Assembly: GCA_028223395.1 (NCBI GenBank)
Contig: JAOIUG010000014.1
Span: 1-36,878, forward strand
Origin: Shewanella sp.
GTDB lineage: Bacteria; Pseudomonadota; Gammaproteobacteria; Enterobacterales; Shewanellaceae
Direction of reading: 5' to 3'
DNA: 36,878 nucleotides
This document shows positions 28,140 to 34,946 of the stretch, one piece after another. The position numbers and the translations under genes were made by a program. The notes beneath the pieces are model-generated. The model saw nothing but the letters and a program-made list of their open reading frames with translations. It was not told the origin of the DNA and did not search any database. Every line of letters starts with the position of its first letter. Position 1 is the first letter of the stretch.

Positions 28140-28512
28140 TTTAATGCTCTAAGGTGTTTGCTTAAACATGCTCGCATATAAGATTTAGCCTAAAATGGTG
28201 CCGCGCGAGGCACCGTTATTGTGATCTTAACGCGTATTGCTCACCCATCACGTTCGCCACTGCTTGAGATTAACTGCTGATTGATTGAGCACCGCAAGCC
28301 TTAAACATGACGTATGATTGTGTTTCTTGTATTTAGTGACCAAACTCAAACGAATAGCGGCTTGGCGATGATTGCCAAGTATCACGCTTTCCTTTAATTT
28401 AGTGACCAGCTAATTTTATTATCAACCTCTTTATATACGTGTTGCGATTACCGCGACACGTAACAGCTTGCTAGCTATTTTGCTGCAAGCTGCGTTTGGA
28501 TTAAGGAATGTA
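28140..28512 (+). promoter_or_regulatory. Upstream region of the condensin-like operon, with repeats and hairpins
   Basis: 373 bases without a gene. GGTGCC / GGCACC (28197-28202 and 28209-28214) is a weak terminator candidate for elaA-ABM. The 12-base direct repeat ATTTAGTGACCA occurs at 28331-28342 and 28397-28408. A CTTGGC / GCCAAG hairpin (28361-28366, 28374-28379) lies between them. CAGCTTGC / GCAAGCTG (28464-28471, 28485-28492) forms a hairpin with an inner AGC/GCT, just ahead of the ribosome site. The direct repeats could bind a regulator; the last hairpin would lie in the mRNA leader. Confidence 0.5.
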
Positions 28513-31500
28513 ATGCCAAGCTTAAATCGCATCGTACTGATTGATACTCACTTGCCCGGCGTAGTTGAACTCGCCCTTGATGGCCATACCAACATATGTG
28601 GTACTAACGCATCGGGTAAAACCACGCTACAGCGCTTGGTGCCGGTTTTTTACGGTGAGTACCCAAGCCGAGTTGTCCCCTCTACTCGTGATAGTTTTGA
28701 GCGCTGGTATCTGCCGCACGAATCGAGCTTTATCATCTACGAATATATTAAATCTGACGGACTCGCCTACCAAGCCGTATTAGCCTCTGCAGGCGATGGC
28801 AAAGGCGTTAATTATCGCTTTATCGCTAAAGGCTTTGAGCTAGATGATTATATTAAAACCCAGCAGGGCGATAACATTCAGTGTTTTACCATGGCTGAAC
28901 TTGGCCGAGAGATGAAGCGCGCGGGTACAGCGGTCACTAATCTACTCAATACTCGAGAGTTTAGGGCGATTATTCAAAACGATAGAGCATTATTAAGCAC
29001 CGGCAGTAACCGCACCGAACTGCGTAATTACGCTCGTCAATTTTCGCTGTGTGAGGCGGAGCACTCGCTGCGCCATATTGAAAAACTGGCCAAAGCAGTA
29101 CACTCAAAAGAGGGTAAGATGGAGACGATCAAATCGATGATCGCCGCCATTCTTGAAGAGGATGGTGTTAATCCTCCTAGCTCTCGCATTAACCCGCAAC
29201 ATGTTGAGTCTTGGATAAAAGAGAGTCAGCTTATTCAGGGCTTTGAGCTTATTCGCCCAGAGTTTGAAAAGCTAGAACAAGAGTTTGACCAGCTACTAAG
29301 CACAGAGCAGCGACTGGCCAGCCTGCGCCGCGGTTATAGCAAAGATGAAAGTGATGAGCTCGAAAGACAAGAGCATCACCAAGATTTGTCAAAAGCGCTC
29401 AACGCTAAACTCAGAGAGTTAGATGAAAAGTGGAAAGCGCAGCGTGATGAGCTCAACTTAGACTTATCAGCCGCTAAGGGCGATGTGGCCAAGTGTGAAC
29501 AAGAGCTTGACTCAATTGAAGATCAACACGCTTCATTTCAAGACGCTGACATTGAACAAGCAAAATTGGATCTCGAGCAGCTGCCCAGCTGGCGCGCGAC
29601 CTTAGAGAACTTGTCAGAGCGGCATAAACTACAAACTGAAAAGCACCAAGATATAGAAGCGGCGTACAACGCCCGTCGCAGTAAAATTGGTGAAGGGCTT
29701 AACCGAGAGCTGGAAAACTTGCATCAAGAGCAAGATAGCTTAAGAGAGTCTCGCGATAAACAGCGTGAACAAGGCCGCTCTGAGTTAGCAGCATTAGAAG
29801 AGCAATGGCGCGATGCCACAGATAAAGGCCAGGCTAAATTTAGTGAACAAGCCTATCAATTAAAGCTGTCTGCCGCAGAGCTGAAAGTACGCGTTGATAG
29901 CGTGACCTACTCAGAAGAGGAAAAGCTGGCATTAGCGGTGTTTGATGAGCGAATTACCCGCGCCGATGAAGAGCAAGAGAGCTGTAACGCAAAGGTTGAG
30001 CGCTTTACAAGCGAAGAGCGTAAGCTGCGTGCTAAACGCGATCAAGCTAATGAAAGTTTACGGGTTGCTGGTATTCGAGTCACAGAGCGCCAAAGCGAGC
30101 TTGAAGAGCTGCACCATATTTTATTCCCGCAGTCACACACGTTACTTGAGTTTTTACGTAAAGAGGCCAATGGCTGGGAAAACACCTTAGGCAAGGTGAT
30201 TAATTCAGATCTGCTGCACCGTAGCGACTTGCAGCCCGCTATTAGCGGTGAAAACCTTGAAGCTTTATATGGTATAGCGCTCGATCTCAAGGCGATCGAT
30301 TCTCCTGAGTACGCCGCCTCTGAGCAGGAGCTGCGCATCAAGCATGCGAATGCCGAGGAGATGCTAACCAGTGCTAAAGAGTTACAGGCAGAAGCTGAGT
30401 CCAAATTAGTGGCCGTTAATAGCGAGCTTGATGCCATGGCACGTGAGCTCACCTTTGCTCGCACCGCCTATAAAAATAGCCGCGACGATCTGCGCCGGCT
30501 GTTTGATGATAAACGCGCTGAGCAAGACAAAATCAACCAAGCATTGAATGAGCGAAAGTCAGCATCGCAAAAGCAACTTGCCAGACTTGAGGGCGAGCTG
30601 AAGCAATTAAAGCAGCAGCAACAAGAGTGGCTTGAAGCGCAAAAAGAGCAGGCGTTAGAAGCGCGCATGGAGAAAAACGCCTATTGGCAGGAGGTTGTCG
30701 GCGCATTAGACAATCAGCTTGGTCAGGTTAAAGCGAATATCCAAAACCGTCGAGATCATGCTAAAAGTGAGCAAAAGGCTTGCGAGCAGTGGTATAAGGA
30801 TGAGCTTAAATCTCGCGGCATTGATGAAGCCAAAATCGTCGCGCTAAAAACCGAGATCCGCACCCTTGAAGCCAATATCAGCAAAGCGGAACAACGCCGC
30901 AGTGAAGTGCTGCGTTATGACGACTGGTATCAACACACTTGGCTGAAACGTAAGCCTAAGTTGCAAACTGAGCTCAGTACAGTAAAGCAAGCGAGCCTAT
31001 CATTAGAGCAGCAACTGAAAGCGCAAGCCAACGACGTTAAAACTCAGCGTGATGAGCTTGAATTACAACGTAAACGCTCAGATGCAGTGCAAGTTGAAGC
31101 CTCAGAAAACCTCACTAAATTACGCAGTGTGATGCGTAAACTGACAGAGCTTAAACTGCCAGCTAATAATGAAGATGCTCAAGGCGGACTGAGCGAGCGT
31201 CTGCGCCAAGGCGAAGAGCAACTGTTAAAGCGTGATTCACTGCTGGGCTCCGTTAAGCAGTATGTTGAACATTTTGATTCAGTCATTGCCAGTAAGTCAG
31301 GTTCTAGCTTATCGGAGACATGGGAGCGCGCGCGCGAAGAGTCGAGCTTTGTCAATGACAAAGGTATTCGTATTCTCGATTACCGCAAACTGGTGCCACA
31401 GCTAGAGCAGTTACTGAACGTGATGGTGCCGCAATCGATGATGGCGCTGCGTGAACAAGGACGTATTTTCGGGGTTGATCTGACCGCGTTTTACGATGTA

Positions 31501-32187
31501 CTTGCCGATATTGACCGCCGCATCGCCACCCAAAGCGCCCGCATTACTCGTGAGGTAGGTGAAGAGTTGTTCCTTGATGGCGTATCGGAATCTGCGGTTA
31601 AGATCCGCTCGCGCATTAGCGAACTAGAATTTTGGCCAGAGCTGGAAGCATTTGTTAAAGCGTTCCGCCAATGGAAAGCGGACGGCTTTAGTGAGTTGCC
31701 GGGAGAAGATTACACCAATAGTATGCGCCGTGCGCTAGACATTATTGGCCGGGCGGCATTATCGGGCGGCATTGCTAAGCTACTGGAGATTGAACTGCGC
31801 TTAAAAGAGGGCAATAGCGATCTGATTATTCGTACCGACAGGCAGCTCAACGAGTCATCAAGCCATGGCATGGCCTACCTTATCTTGTGTAAGTTCCTAT
31901 TAGCTTTTACCCGCCTGTTACGTGGCCGGGCAGAGGTGACGATTCACTGGCCCATTGACGAGCTAGGTACCTTACACCACGGTAACGTGAAAAAGATATT
32001 TGATGCGTGTGAGAATAACAATATCTCAGTACTTGGCGCATTCCCTAACCCAGAATCTGAGGTGCTTAGCTTGTTTGCTAATCGTTATATTATTAATAAA
32101 CAAACCAAAAAACTGCAGGTGGTTAAACCGCAGGTTAACTCGATTGCCGAAAAGCTTAGTCAGCGACGTACTCAGGAGGCGGTGTAA
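28513..32187 (+). CDS. SMC-like ATPase of a Wadjet/Mks-type condensin (JetC/MksB-like)
   Basis: The 1224-residue product has the SMC plan. The N-terminal head has Walker A ICGTNASGKTTLQ (30-38). A first long coiled coil spans ~270-535. A hinge-like part at ~540-605 (HTLLEFLRKEANGWENTLGKVI..LLHRSDLQP) resembles the hinge of JetC/MukB-type proteins. A second coiled coil runs ~610-960, and the C-terminal head follows. The signature position reads SSSHGMAYL (1115-1123) in place of the usual LSGG-like motif, and Walker B is VTIHWPIDELG with D1149-E1150. Start ATG 28513 (AAGGA upstream) is preferred to an earlier TTG. It should dimerise and extrude DNA loops. The stop overlaps the next start by one base. 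Confidence 0.85.
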   Translation: MPSLNRIVLIDTHLPGVVELALDGHTNICGTNASGKTTLQRLVPVFYGEYPSRVVPSTRDSFERWYLPHESSFIIYEYIKSDGLAYQAVLASAGDGKGVNYRFIAKGFELDDYIKTQQGDNIQCFTMAELGREMKRAGTAVTNLLNTREFRAIIQNDRALLSTGSNRTELRNYARQFSLCEAEHSLRHIEKLAKAVHSKEGKMETIKSMIAAILEEDGVNPPSSRINPQHVESWIKESQLIQGFELIRPEFEKLEQEFDQLLSTEQRLASLRRGYSKDESDELERQEHHQDLSKALNAKLRELDEKWKAQRDELNLDLSAAKGDVAKCEQELDSIEDQHASFQDADIEQAKLDLEQLPSWRATLENLSERHKLQTEKHQDIEAAYNARRSKIGEGLNRELENLHQEQDSLRESRDKQREQGRSELAALEEQWRDATDKGQAKFSEQAYQLKLSAAELKVRVDSVTYSEEEKLALAVFDERITRADEEQESCNAKVERFTSEERKLRAKRDQANESLRVAGIRVTERQSELEELHHILFPQSHTLLEFLRKEANGWENTLGKVINSDLLHRSDLQPAISGENLEALYGIALDLKAIDSPEYAASEQELRIKHANAEEMLTSAKELQAEAESKLVAVNSELDAMARELTFARTAYKNSRDDLRRLFDDKRAEQDKINQALNERKSASQKQLARLEGELKQLKQQQQEWLEAQKEQALEARMEKNAYWQEVVGALDNQLGQVKANIQNRRDHAKSEQKACEQWYKDELKSRGIDEAKIVALKTEIRTLEANISKAEQRRSEVLRYDDWYQHTWLKRKPKLQTELSTVKQASLSLEQQLKAQANDVKTQRDELELQRKRSDAVQVEASENLTKLRSVMRKLTELKLPANNEDAQGGLSERLRQGEEQLLKRDSLLGSVKQYVEHFDSVIASKSGSSLSETWERAREESSFVNDKGIRILDYRKLVPQLEQLLNVMVPQSMMALREQGRIFGVDLTAFYDVLADIDRRIATQSARITREVGEELFLDGVSESAVKIRSRISELEFWPELEAFVKAFRQWKADGFSELPGEDYTNSMRRALDIIGRAALSGGIAKLLEIELRLKEGNSDLIIRTDRQLNESSSHGMAYLILCKFLLAFTRLLRGRAEVTIHWPIDELGTLHHGNVKKIFDACENNNISVLGAFPNPESEVLSLFANRYIINKQTKKLQVVKPQVNSIAEKLSQRRTQEAV

Positions 32188-32840
32188 TGAGCCAAGTAAC
32201 AGAAACCACATTAGTGGGCACTAGTGCGTTGATTGAACGTTTATTAAAGGGCGAGTTTATTTGCCGTACTACCGATGAAGATGGCTGGCGCGCGCTAAAA
32301 AATCCAGATACCCGCGAGCGTGTTGAGATCTACTTAAATCAGATCAACCGCACCATTGGCTCAGCGGGCGAAGGTGAGGTGTTTTTTTGCGGTTATCAGC
32401 AACTAGGCGACAGCGAGCGCAAAGTGATTTCATCGCAGTTTAAAGATATCTGTAATGCACTGATCCCGCTGGTGGAATGGTTGGTATTAGTGCAAGAGGG
32501 CAGCGGTCAAGACGCGCCTTTATCTGAAGGCGTAGCAGTCAGATTGACAGAGCTACAGACGCGCATTGAAGACACGCCGGCTTTTCGTGAACAATTGGCT
32601 AAAATCAGCCATTACCGTCTATTTGGCTCAACCAGTAGTAATGTTGATGCGCAAATAAAATTAGTGTTTAAGCGCTTAGTGGAGCTCGGGTATTTAACTA
32701 AACCCAACGCAGAGAAGCAGATTTTCATCGCCACCGGCAAGCTCGATTACCTATATGAAGTGATCCGTTTTATTGATGAAACCGAAGGCTTGAGCTTAGA
32801 GGCGCAAGCTGAAACTGCCACCCAAAGGGACTTGGTCTAA
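32187..32840 (+). CDS. MukE/MksE-like condensin subunit (JetB-like)
   Basis: The 217-residue product is mostly helical with predicted winged-helix pieces: LIERLLKGEFICRTTDEDGWRAL near the start, NQINRTIGSAGEGEVFF, and VDAQIKLVFKRLVELGYLTKPN..IFIATGKLDYLYEVIRFI toward the end. This is the pattern of MksE/MukE, the small subunit that pairs with the kleisin. The strongest argument is its place between the SMC-like ATPase and the kleisin-like gene. Its ATG overlaps the TAA of the ATPase gene (TAATG), and the next gene starts two bases after its stop. Confidence 0.75.
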   Translation: MSQVTETTLVGTSALIERLLKGEFICRTTDEDGWRALKNPDTRERVEIYLNQINRTIGSAGEGEVFFCGYQQLGDSERKVISSQFKDICNALIPLVEWLVLVQEGSGQDAPLSEGVAVRLTELQTRIEDTPAFREQLAKISHYRLFGSTSSNVDAQIKLVFKRLVELGYLTKPNAEKQIFIATGKLDYLYEVIRFIDETEGLSLEAQAETATQRDLV

Positions 32841-32841
32841 T

Positions 32842-34062
32842 ATGAGCAGTAACTTACATCAAGCTGGAGTTAAACTACTCAAGCAGCTTGGGCGTCATGC
32901 TGAATTAGTGATGGATGTTTATCTATCGGGCTCGGTGTCAGAAGATGAAACTAATGCCGCAGCCATCGAAAAGTTACGTAAAAGCGACATATTGTGGCGG
33001 CCAGAAGCGGAGCAAGAGCTGCGTTTAAAGCGCTCGGTGCGTGCTTTATTAGAAGAAGCATTAAGTGATGAGCGTAACCGCCAGATAGACGCTAATGCTG
33101 GCAGTTCGCTGGCCAGTATTAAAACCTTAGCAGCTCATTATAAAGAAGCGCGTCACAATGTTGATTACGCAGCCTCTGAGGCGTATCTCGCTGATCTCAA
33201 TGAGCATGTTTATAGTTTTGCCGATGGTTTGCGTTATTCAATCCGGGTGCTGTGGAGCCGGATTAATAACGAGTTTGGTTATGTTGGCACCATCAACGCT
33301 AAAATTCGTGAAAATGAATTGGCACAACAGCAAGTGACAGAGCTGCTCAACGGCTTAGAGATGTTCAAGTTTAGCGAGCTTACCGAGATTGCGGGTGATA
33401 TTCGTGAACTGAGAAAGTTACTGGTGACCACGTTACAAGATACGTTGAGCGATTGCACACAAGAGTTGAGTGTGGTGCAGGGACGTCTGCTGGAGCTGCT
33501 TGGCCGTTTCCGTCAAATTCGTGGGCGTACTCGTTTACTTAAAGGTTGGCTGCTTTATACCGATCTTCACCCAGATTATCATCCAGCAGATCATGTTAGC
33601 CATAAACAGCTGCCTGCATTGTTTAACTGCGCCGAGGCGCTACTTGCGCCAGCTGCAGTAGATGTTCACAGCCCTTTATACGAGCCTGAACTGTTTGATA
33701 TTGTCGCTAATATTAACCGTATCGACCGACTTAATGCTGGGCAGGTAACCGCCGAGCAAGATGTATCAGTATCGCTAAGCCAAACGGAAGACTTTGATAT
33801 TCCTGATAACCCGCTCAAGTTAGCGGTTGATGCCTACTTCTGCGCGGTGATTGATTCAGGCAAGAGCCAATCAGCCTTAGCGTATCTCGATGAACAAGCG
33901 TTAAGCTGGGATCGTGAAAGTTGGTTGTATCAAGTCATTTGCGGTTATGAAGGCTTGCCTGAAGAGCACAGACAATATTTTGAGCTTGAAGCCATCGGCG
34001 AGTCAGATCCTGTTTATAGCGGTAACTTCATTATTCGTGATGTTGAATTGTGGCTCGCTTAA
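32842..34062 (+). CDS. MukF/MksF-like kleisin candidate (JetA-like)
   Basis: The 406-residue product is soluble and nearly all helical. An N-terminal part (~1-110) could be the winged-helix domain of MukF-type kleisins (HQAGVKLLKQLGRHAELVMDVY, WRPEAEQELRLKRSVRALLEEAL). A central region (~110-240) is rich in long helices, with NNEFGYVGTINAKIRENELAQQQV typical of a helical linker. The C-terminal half includes LLELLGRFRQIRGRTRLLKGW and an acidic end. Identification as the kleisin comes mainly from size, fold pattern and operon context. It overlaps the Toprim gene by 13 bases. Confidence 0.7.
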   Translation: MSSNLHQAGVKLLKQLGRHAELVMDVYLSGSVSEDETNAAAIEKLRKSDILWRPEAEQELRLKRSVRALLEEALSDERNRQIDANAGSSLASIKTLAAHYKEARHNVDYAASEAYLADLNEHVYSFADGLRYSIRVLWSRINNEFGYVGTINAKIRENELAQQQVTELLNGLEMFKFSELTEIAGDIRELRKLLVTTLQDTLSDCTQELSVVQGRLLELLGRFRQIRGRTRLLKGWLLYTDLHPDYHPADHVSHKQLPALFNCAEALLAPAAVDVHSPLYEPELFDIVANINRIDRLNAGQVTAEQDVSVSLSQTEDFDIPDNPLKLAVDAYFCAVIDSGKSQSALAYLDEQALSWDRESWLYQVICGYEGLPEEHRQYFELEAIGESDPVYSGNFIIRDVELWLA

Positions 34063-34904
34063 CTAAAGTCCATGCCAATTTGATTGCCAATGTGCTGCGA
34101 AAGCGCATTGGCAAAGTATCCTTTAGCGCGAATTGGCAAAAGATATTTGCAGAGCTGGAAGTCGGTGATGTTGATGAGTCTAGCCGCGCTTTGCGATTTA
34201 GTGCTGAGCAGTTACATCAACTGAATCAAATGTCGACGGTTTACTTTGGTAGTGAGCTCCTTAACGACTCGTTCGAGGGCACTCGCACTGAAGTTGCCAA
34301 ACACAGTCGCTATGAAAAGCTCGCAGCAATCACTCCAGATGAGCAGTATGTGCTGCTCAAACCGCATCCTTTTTACGCCGGTTTGCCACTTGAGTACTCA
34401 CTGAGAATACCGCTTACTCACATCATTGAATTACTCAAGTCTCAAGCGACACCGATTACTCATCTCGTGATTGTTGAAAATCTTGATGCCTTTGATTGTT
34501 GGCAGCAGTTTTCGGTCGATGAATCGCTCAACAATGCATTAGTGGTGTATCGAGGGCATAACGGATTGGCTAAAGGACTCAGTGCGTTGCTTGAGCTGCT
34601 ACCTCAGAGCATAGCGGTGGTGGCATTTGTAGATGTCGATCCCGCGGGGATCCAAATTGCACTGACTACCCCAAAAGTCACTCAATTGCTTGCGCCAAGT
34701 ATTGAGGCGCTTTTATCGTTAGTGGTTAGCGCAAGCGCTAGCGAAGACTACACCGCGCAATATAAGCAGCTTAAGTATATTCGTCAGCAAAATCATGCTT
34801 GGCAGGTACTGCAGCAGTTTATTATCGAGCATCAAGTCAGTATCAAGCAGCAGCATTTGCTAGCCCATCAGCTCAGGTTAATGCTCCATTCAAAGGCGTG
34901 TTAA
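34050..34904 (+). CDS. Toprim-domain nuclease subunit (JetD/MksG-like, short)
   Basis: The 284-residue product has an N-terminal helical part (~1-130) and a C-terminal Toprim fold: THLVIVENLDAFDCW gives the metal-binding E143, VVYRGHNGLAKG follows, and VVAFVDVDPAGIQIA gives D195 and D197. E plus DxD is the Toprim nuclease set shown to cut plasmid DNA in JetD/EptD/MksG. Typical JetD proteins are around 380-400 residues, so this one is short, with most of the N-terminal arm domain reduced. It starts with GTG inside the end of the kleisin gene and has no clear ribosome site, so it probably depends on translational coupling. Confidence 0.8.
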   Translation: MARLTKVHANLIANVLRKRIGKVSFSANWQKIFAELEVGDVDESSRALRFSAEQLHQLNQMSTVYFGSELLNDSFEGTRTEVAKHSRYEKLAAITPDEQYVLLKPHPFYAGLPLEYSLRIPLTHIIELLKSQATPITHLVIVENLDAFDCWQQFSVDESLNNALVVYRGHNGLAKGLSALLELLPQSIAVVAFVDVDPAGIQIALTTPKVTQLLAPSIEALLSLVVSASASEDYTAQYKQLKYIRQQNHAWQVLQQFIIEHQVSIKQQHLLAHQLRLMLHSKAC

Positions 34905-34946
34905 ACATAAATAATCGCCATGATAAATCGCTTGAGCCAGGCATCG

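What the first reader, a model, noticed from the sequence alone, without database searches (positions are those of the whole stretch)
28513..34904. Four-gene Wadjet/MksBEFG-like condensin and Toprim operon with unusual architecture
Seen: an SMC-like ATPase, a MukE-like and a MukF-like protein, and a Toprim protein in one tightly packed operon. Known: JetABCD/MksBEFG/EptABCD systems defend against plasmids by loop extrusion and cleavage by the Toprim subunit. Inferred: this locus is a divergent lineage of that class. No other defence genes, integrase or transposase border it, so it may be a fixed chromosomal system rather than a recent island.
Basis: partly seen in the sequence, partly recalled or inferred. 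Interest (0 to 1): 0.88.

Follow-up and report, generated by a model that had tools for sequence, protein, structure and literature searches.

The report
Condensin with a detachable nuclease
Nearly all Shewanella-family genomes examined carry the same three-gene, condensin-like machine that likely folds DNA, but only about half keep a fast-changing fourth gene, predicted to be a nuclease that would turn the machine into a plasmid cutter, so the group likely offers a natural test of how a defence system becomes a chromosome organiser.

Summary
The four-gene operon is real: a DUF3584 SMC-like ATPase (B), a MukE/MksE-like protein (E), a likely MukF-like kleisin (F) and a 284-aa DUF7281 Toprim protein (G) whose predicted fold matches MksG, Topo VI-A and JetD. 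PADLOC's Wadjet models hardly match it; gene order and nuclease length differ from mksFEBG/JetD. "Fixed plasmid-defence system" is half right. B is in 150 of 152 Shewanellaceae genomes, and E and F accompany it in all 149 operons fetched; G is in only 72 of those 149, with one recent remnant. Its presence changes 12 times by parsimony (19 if only losses are allowed). Without G, B, E and F stay under the same strong purifying selection, so the core has a G-independent job, likely chromosome organisation beside Smc. Where kept, G evolves several-fold faster than the core, yet its presumed active-site residues are invariant in 71 of 71. In 47 of 71 G genes the start folds into a hairpin beyond what the protein requires. 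Best reading: a housekeeping condensin with an optional plasmid-cutting nuclease. The plasmid role is inferred; a plasmid-marker survey did not support it. No paper on this lineage turned up in the searches named.

The parts
28272..28512 (+). leader region shared with the relatives' operon; homology to relative G069 starts at 28272
   Evidence: BLAST match of window 28272-34911 at 88% to G069
28513..32187 (+). B: DUF3584 SMC-like ATPase, 1224 aa
   Evidence: Pfam DUF3584, 1624.9 bits
28600..28623 (+). Walker A GTNASGKT of B (residues 30-37)
   Evidence: identical in 77 of 77 operons without intact G; GTNASGKT or GTNGAGKT in 70 of 71 with G, one gapped row
31951..31968 (+). Walker B region PIDELG of B (residues 1147-1152)
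   Evidence: PIDELG, PVDELG or PIDEIG in 148 of 148
32187..32840 (+). E: MukE/MksE-like (KITE) subunit, 217 aa
   Evidence: MksE E=7.3e-5, 23.6 bits, below cut-off 27; the E of one of two plasmid cousins scanned passes at 34.5 bits
32842..34062 (+). F: likely MukF-like kleisin, 406 aa
   Evidence: no family; model pLDDT 76.7; MukF or MukBEF-complex entries are the first five Foldseek rows and eight of the first nine VIA-align rows
34050..34904 (+). G: DUF7281 Toprim protein, predicted nuclease, 284 aa
34084..34114 (+). hairpin in the start of G: 13-bp stem, 5-nt loop
   Evidence: pair counts on relatives
34476..34478 (+). codon of G Glu143, presumed metal ligand
   Evidence: invariant in 71 of 71 G proteins
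34632..34640 (+). codons of G Asp195 to Asp197 (DxD), presumed metal ligands
   Evidence: both Asp invariant in 71 of 71 G proteins

Best explanation
The operon encodes a MukBEF-like set of three proteins (B, E, F; F by predicted fold only) that is kept in all 149 Shewanellaceae operons fetched and likely acts as a second, loop-extruding chromosome condensin, plus a protein with a predicted Toprim fold (G) that is present in only 72 of those 149 genomes and is predicted to be a nuclease that would cut small circular DNA which the condensin has fully reeled in. Shown here: the conservation pattern, the repeated absence of G at one place in the operon, unchanged selection on B, E and F without G, fast protein change of G with an invariant set of presumed active-site residues, and a hairpin with compensatory changes in the start of many G genes. 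Inferred from MukBEF, MksBEFG and JetABCD: that B-E-F extrude loops, that G docks on the complex and cuts when extrusion of a circle is complete, and that absence of G leaves a plain condensin. The hairpin probably keeps nuclease output low relative to the condensin; this is a guess from its position.
For: B over cut-off in 150 of 152 family genomes; E and F found beside it in 149 of 149 fetched operons, which were chosen by B. G: 71 in the fetched stretch, 1 on another contig (G009), 1 remnant of 41 residues 97.6% identical to a neighbour's G (G075), 76 absent. The symporter gene that follows G in 57 of 71 operons follows F in 60 of the 77 without intact G, one of these 77 being cut short. 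States cluster on the B-E-F tree: 12 changes against at least 41 in 300 shuffles. In disjoint closest pairs, median dN/dS with G and without: B 0.0295 and 0.0239, E 0.0212 and 0.0194, F 0.0294 and 0.0285 (p 0.29, 0.82, 0.67); G 0.149. Walker motifs are kept without G. E143, D195, D197 in 71 of 71. The G model matches MksG, Topo VI-A and JetD. Plasmid cousins carry four genes in the same order with DUF7281 in 3 of 3 looked at, so G is likely ancestral. MksG and JetD are reported as nucleases in PMC10123090 and PMC10586767 (sections read).
Against: Nothing here shows plasmid cleavage. Rep_3 plasmid initiators are not rarer in genomes with G: 16 of 73 with G, 7 of 77 without (tallied by hand). 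Smc is present too (147 of 152 over cut-off), so a chromosome role of B-E-F is not forced. The F model is mediocre and helical bundles match widely. 14 of 43 well-supported splits of the G tree conflict with the B-E-F tree, so some G history may be transfer rather than loss. All-pair medians gave E a higher dN/dS without G, 0.0523 against 0.0279; this vanished in disjoint pairs. The ABC-signature stretch of B is variable in both groups.
Confidence: 0.6

Rival explanations
1. A plain Wadjet-like plasmid defence system: B-E-F has no job without G, and genomes lacking G carry decaying remains.
For: Four-gene architecture and Toprim fold; plasmid-borne cousins with four genes.
Against: B, E and F reading frames are near full length in all 76 operons without any G, with dN/dS no higher than in operons with G and intact Walker motifs.
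Confidence: 0.1
2. G serves the chromosome, not defence: a Topo VI-A/Spo11-like subunit that nicks or resolves DNA held by the condensin, dispensable in some lineages.
Against: Much faster protein evolution than the core and patchy presence fit an accessory or arms-race part better; the nearest solved relatives include the plasmid nucleases MksG and JetD.
Confidence: 0.18
3. The core came first and G was gained several times, rather than lost many times.
For: Under free gain and loss 12 changes suffice, against 19 losses if gain is barred; 14 of 43 supported splits of the G tree conflict with B-E-F.
Against: The most divergent operons of the midpoint-rooted tree and the plasmid cousins have G; G and B-E-F distances correlate at r 0.88, shuffles at most 0.24; G sits at the same place, and 41 of 71 G genes overlap F by exactly 13 nt; a fresh remnant shows one loss.
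Confidence: 0.12

Closest known systems
Wadjet JetABCD types I-III
   Different: SMC gene first and kleisin third; nuclease 284 aa against 374 residues in the solved JetD chain; PADLOC Jet models match at 18.7 bits or less; nuclease often absent
MksBEFG (C. glutamicum) and EptABCD
   Different: MksG has DUF3322 plus DUF2220 (PMC10123090); G has DUF7281 and no DUF3322 match; operon order there is mksFEBG
MksBEF without nuclease (P. aeruginosa)
   Same: condensin without nuclease, as in the G-less Shewanella operons; [quoted passage not shown]
   Different: here species with and without the nuclease sit side by side within one genus; the sequence relation of the two lineages was not tested
MukBEF
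   Same: MukF-like fold of F
   Different: B does not match Pfam MukB; MukB is over cut-off in only 4 of 152 family genomes, not in the window's own, which is 52.6% complete

Membership tests
Wadjet (JetABCD) | SMC, KITE, kleisin and Toprim nuclease encoded together | tested here: inconclusive
   SMC and Toprim clear; E below its cut-off; F only by a mediocre fold model
Wadjet (JetABCD) | match to type I-III models | tested here: not met
   best PADLOC scores: JetC 17.5, JetB 12.2, JetD 18.7 bits, none for F
Wadjet (JetABCD) | operon order kleisin-KITE-SMC-nuclease (as printed for mksFEBG in PMC10123090; the order in every type was not checked) | tested here: not met
   order here is SMC, KITE, kleisin, nuclease
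Wadjet (JetABCD) | Toprim metal-binding acidic residues in the nuclease | tested here: met
   E143, D195, D197 in 71 of 71; equivalence to JetD residues is read from fold and motif, not from a residue table
Wadjet (JetABCD) | restriction of small circular plasmids | not testable with these tools
   needs an experiment; the Rep_3 marker survey gave no support
MksBEFG | nuclease with DUF3322 plus DUF2220 | tested here: not met
   G matches DUF7281; JetD_C only at 12.7 bits, below 22; no DUF3322
MksBEFG | MksE-family KITE subunit | tested here: inconclusive
   23.6 bits against a cut-off of 27; of two plasmid cousins' E scanned, one passes at 34.5 bits and one has no match
MukBEF | MukB N-terminal family in the SMC | tested here: not met
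   no MukB match in B
Bacterial MukF-type kleisin | MukF fold | tested here: inconclusive

The most novel reading that the evidence does not exclude
A housekeeping condensin that moonlights as a plasmid killer: across Shewanella and probably related marine families, one vertically inherited motor folds the chromosome, while a plug-in nuclease, throttled by an RNA hairpin at its own start, can be kept, rapidly remodelled or dropped without disturbing the motor, so the defence-to-chromosome transition has happened over and over in one genus.
Probability: 0.4. Interest if true: 0.82.

Novelty: new variant of a known kind. Interest (0 to 1): 0.66.

Why it matters
The review read (PMC10586767) calls the origin of Wadjet and its relation to other SMC complexes unresolved. 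Here operons with and without the nuclease, mostly at one site in closely related species, allow the step between plasmid defence and chromosome organisation to be tested directly, with laboratory strains available. It also points to a condensin family hardly matched by the PADLOC models and to a hairpin that may guard a potentially toxic nuclease.

Tried and rejected
Sequence searches of the PDB with B and G alone found nothing; profiles of E and F found only weak rows of unrelated proteins; the profile of G found Spo11 (E 0.0017) and, more weakly, Topo VI-A (0.039) and MksG (0.58).

Contrast of residues conserved with G but variable without G, to find the docking surface: the genomes without G are more diverse, so all three proteins shift; not used.

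Hairpin as an intrinsic terminator: the copies printed mostly lack a T-run after the stem, so a plain terminator is unlikely. Rfam gave no match over a gathering score for 33900-34300. By the synonymous test 22 of the 30 G genes that do not overlap F by 13 nt show no hairpin at nt 19-75; folding of the whole F-G junction against dinucleotide shuffles gave 37 of 41 and 11 of 30 below z -1.5. In pair counts on A8, a slid control (+2) had a slightly higher covariation score (0.182 against 0.169), and pair types did not exceed the shuffles. The first 57 nt of F also fold somewhat better than random (mean z -1.32).

Ancestral site in the window's own genome: the downstream symporter gene was not found, but the genome is 52.6% complete, so nothing follows.

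Alignment A3 held one wrong row (an F protein among B proteins) and was not used.

Full report
WHAT IS THERE. The window lies in a fragmentary genome (146 contigs, 52.6% complete). Its operon holds four genes: B 28513-32187, E 32187-32840, F 32842-34062 and G 34050-34904, with E starting on the last base of B and G overlapping F by 13 nt. B is a full-length DUF3584 protein (1624.9 bits), G carries DUF7281 (144.7 bits), E is weakly MksE-like (23.6 bits, cut-off 27), F has no family. NCBIfam gives nothing near its cut-offs; PADLOC gives only weak JetC, JetB and JetD matches.

A NEAR-UNIVERSAL CORE. In 152 genomes of the family, DUF3584 is over cut-off in 150; the two exceptions are in genus g5. 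MukB is over cut-off in 4 of 152, three of them strongly, and Smc in 147 of 152. I fetched 149 operons, located by B (all but G119, on a broken contig, and the two without B; window). E and F were found in 149 of 149; B of G126 was cut by my stretch and F of G088 was partial. Titles from one scan by B show Shewanella, and Parashewanella for one genus-g4 genome; 72 of 74 named loci matched a handle, 29 with G and 43 without.

A DETACHABLE NUCLEASE. Of the 149, 71 have G in the fetched stretch, G009 has it on another contig, G075 keeps only a C-terminal remnant of 41 residues (97.6% identical to a neighbour's G), and 76 have none. A genome-wide profile search matched 76 of 152 genomes: these 72, G075, G119, and two genomes (G039, G131) with a DUF7281 protein only away from the operon. 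The same symporter gene follows G in 57 of 71 operons with G and follows F in 60 of 77 without intact G (G075 included; G141 was too short to tell), so G is present or absent at one place. On a midpoint-rooted B-E-F protein tree of 148 operons (G126 left out), presence changes 12 times by parsimony; 300 shuffles never gave fewer than 41. If only losses are allowed there are 19. G and B-E-F distances correlate (r 0.88, 65 genomes; seven with partial or remnant G or cut B left out), though 14 of 43 supported G splits conflict with supported B-E-F splits.

SELECTION. Among the window and seven close relatives, pairwise identity is 57.0-91.5% for G and 92.8-98.9% for B; between the window and G123 dS is alike (0.52 for G, 0.50 for B) but dN/dS is 0.139 against 0.027. 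Tree distances of G are a median 8.8 times those of B-E-F among close pairs, 5.5 over all pairs. In disjoint closest pairs (28 with G, 25 without, 24 for F; G075 counted as without), dN/dS of B, E and F does not differ by the state of G. All-pair medians agreed for B and F but not for E. Thus there is no sign that the core is relaxed once G is gone. G keeps R79, K90, E143, N144, G169, D195, D197, P198 and G200 in 71 of 71. Whether the speed of G is relaxation or an arms race is open.

A HAIRPIN IN THE START OF G. A 13-bp stem lies at 34084-34114; window 34050-34140 folds at z -3.69 against dinucleotide shuffles. Against synonymous-codon randomisation, nt 19-75 of G gave mean z -3.69 in the 41 genes that overlap F by 13 nt (39 of 41 below -1.5); the overlapping window nt 37-93 gave -2.79, and the 13 other windows lay between -0.47 and 0.15. 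Of the 30 other G genes, 8 are below -1.5, making 47 of 71. The stem differs in sequence and register between clades. Pair counts on 30 of the 41 (28 distinct) gave 95.0% and 90.1% of cells paired, with both-sided changes at 4 of 10 and 3 of 13 pairs; left out were 8 genes of the window's own clade, G042, G104 and G007. The structures were taken from the same sequences, so these counts lean towards them; the synonymous test does not. Six control windows in E gave no signal; of six in F, those at its start gave a mild one.

BEYOND THE FAMILY. In 295 genomes of the order, DUF3584 is over cut-off in 104 and DUF7281 in 61. By hand tally outside the family: 82 with DUF3584, 46 of them with DUF7281, 36 without; unnamed family f6 has 12 with DUF3584 and none with DUF7281 over cut-off. 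Their operons were not inspected. DUF3584 relatives at under 60% identity occur on 43 plasmid records, 7 of them with a match over at least 80% of B. The three inspected (Aromatoleum, Acinetobacter, Vibrio) have four genes of matching sizes in the order B-E-F-G with DUF7281 in the fourth. PADLOC gave them only weak Jet matches (best 25.8 bits, JetD3, for the Acinetobacter G; 22.7, JetB, for the Vibrio E; the Vibrio B was not scanned). So the four-gene form exists on mobile DNA, and in Shewanellaceae its core became resident.

THE WINDOW'S OWN COPY. Homology to G069 covers 28272-34911; upstream DNA maps elsewhere in the eight relatives searched and the DNA after the operon found no match in them: in this genome the operon has moved, or the assembly is joined wrongly.

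MECHANISM AND LIMITS. From the review (PMC10586767, section 4 read in full) and the MksG paper (PMC10123090, sections 26, 27 and the first part of 32 read): JetABC and MksBEF are MukBEF-like; JetD and MksG are Toprim nucleases; JetABCD cuts small circles, proposed to follow total loop extrusion. I carry this over to G by fold and active site. Not shown: extrusion, docking, cutting, or any plasmid effect. A crude test went against it: Rep_3 initiators occur in 16 of 73 genomes with G and 7 of 77 without; some lie on contigs of over 100 kb, which the model would spare, so it decides little.

NOVELTY. Searches for DUF3584 (5 papers, none on this by title), DUF7281 (0), Shewanella with MksB (0), Wadjet with Shewanella (8), Wadjet/MksB/MukB/Toprim (9), condensin/Shewanella/MukB/SMC (15 of 223 listed), JetD/JetC/type IV/Wadjet (18) and MksBEF/MksG/JetD (6) showed no account of this lineage; apart from the two papers read, I saw only listings with titles and abstract starts. 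The library lacks most subscription journals.

Noticed in passing
window 28272-34911: The operon is not at the alanine-symporter/dicarboxylate-symporter site seen in close relatives; shared DNA ends sharply at both sides.
   Followed up: partly
L047:7432-10906: Genome G131, whose operon lacks G, has a lone DUF7281 protein near a phage-type integrase and next to a sodium/hydrogen exchanger.
   Followed up: partly
G039:C26:93962-100370: Genome G039 has a core without G and, elsewhere, a second DUF3584 gene near a DUF7281 gene, probably a whole accessory system.
   Followed up: no
L101, L102: Three Shewanella genomes (G061, G133, G134) carry a MukB-like gene with about 74 bits, unusual for the family.
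   Followed up: no
window 34084-34114: Hairpin in the first codons of the nuclease gene, with compensatory changes among relatives; no Rfam family over its gathering score.
   Followed up: yes
start of F genes, nt 1-57: Mild excess of RNA structure against synonymous codons (mean z -1.32, 15 of 41 below -1.5).
   Followed up: no
L049: G055 holds, between the same two symporter genes, a much more distant version of all four genes (B about 25% identical over the aligned half), so the version at this site can be replaced.
   Followed up: partly
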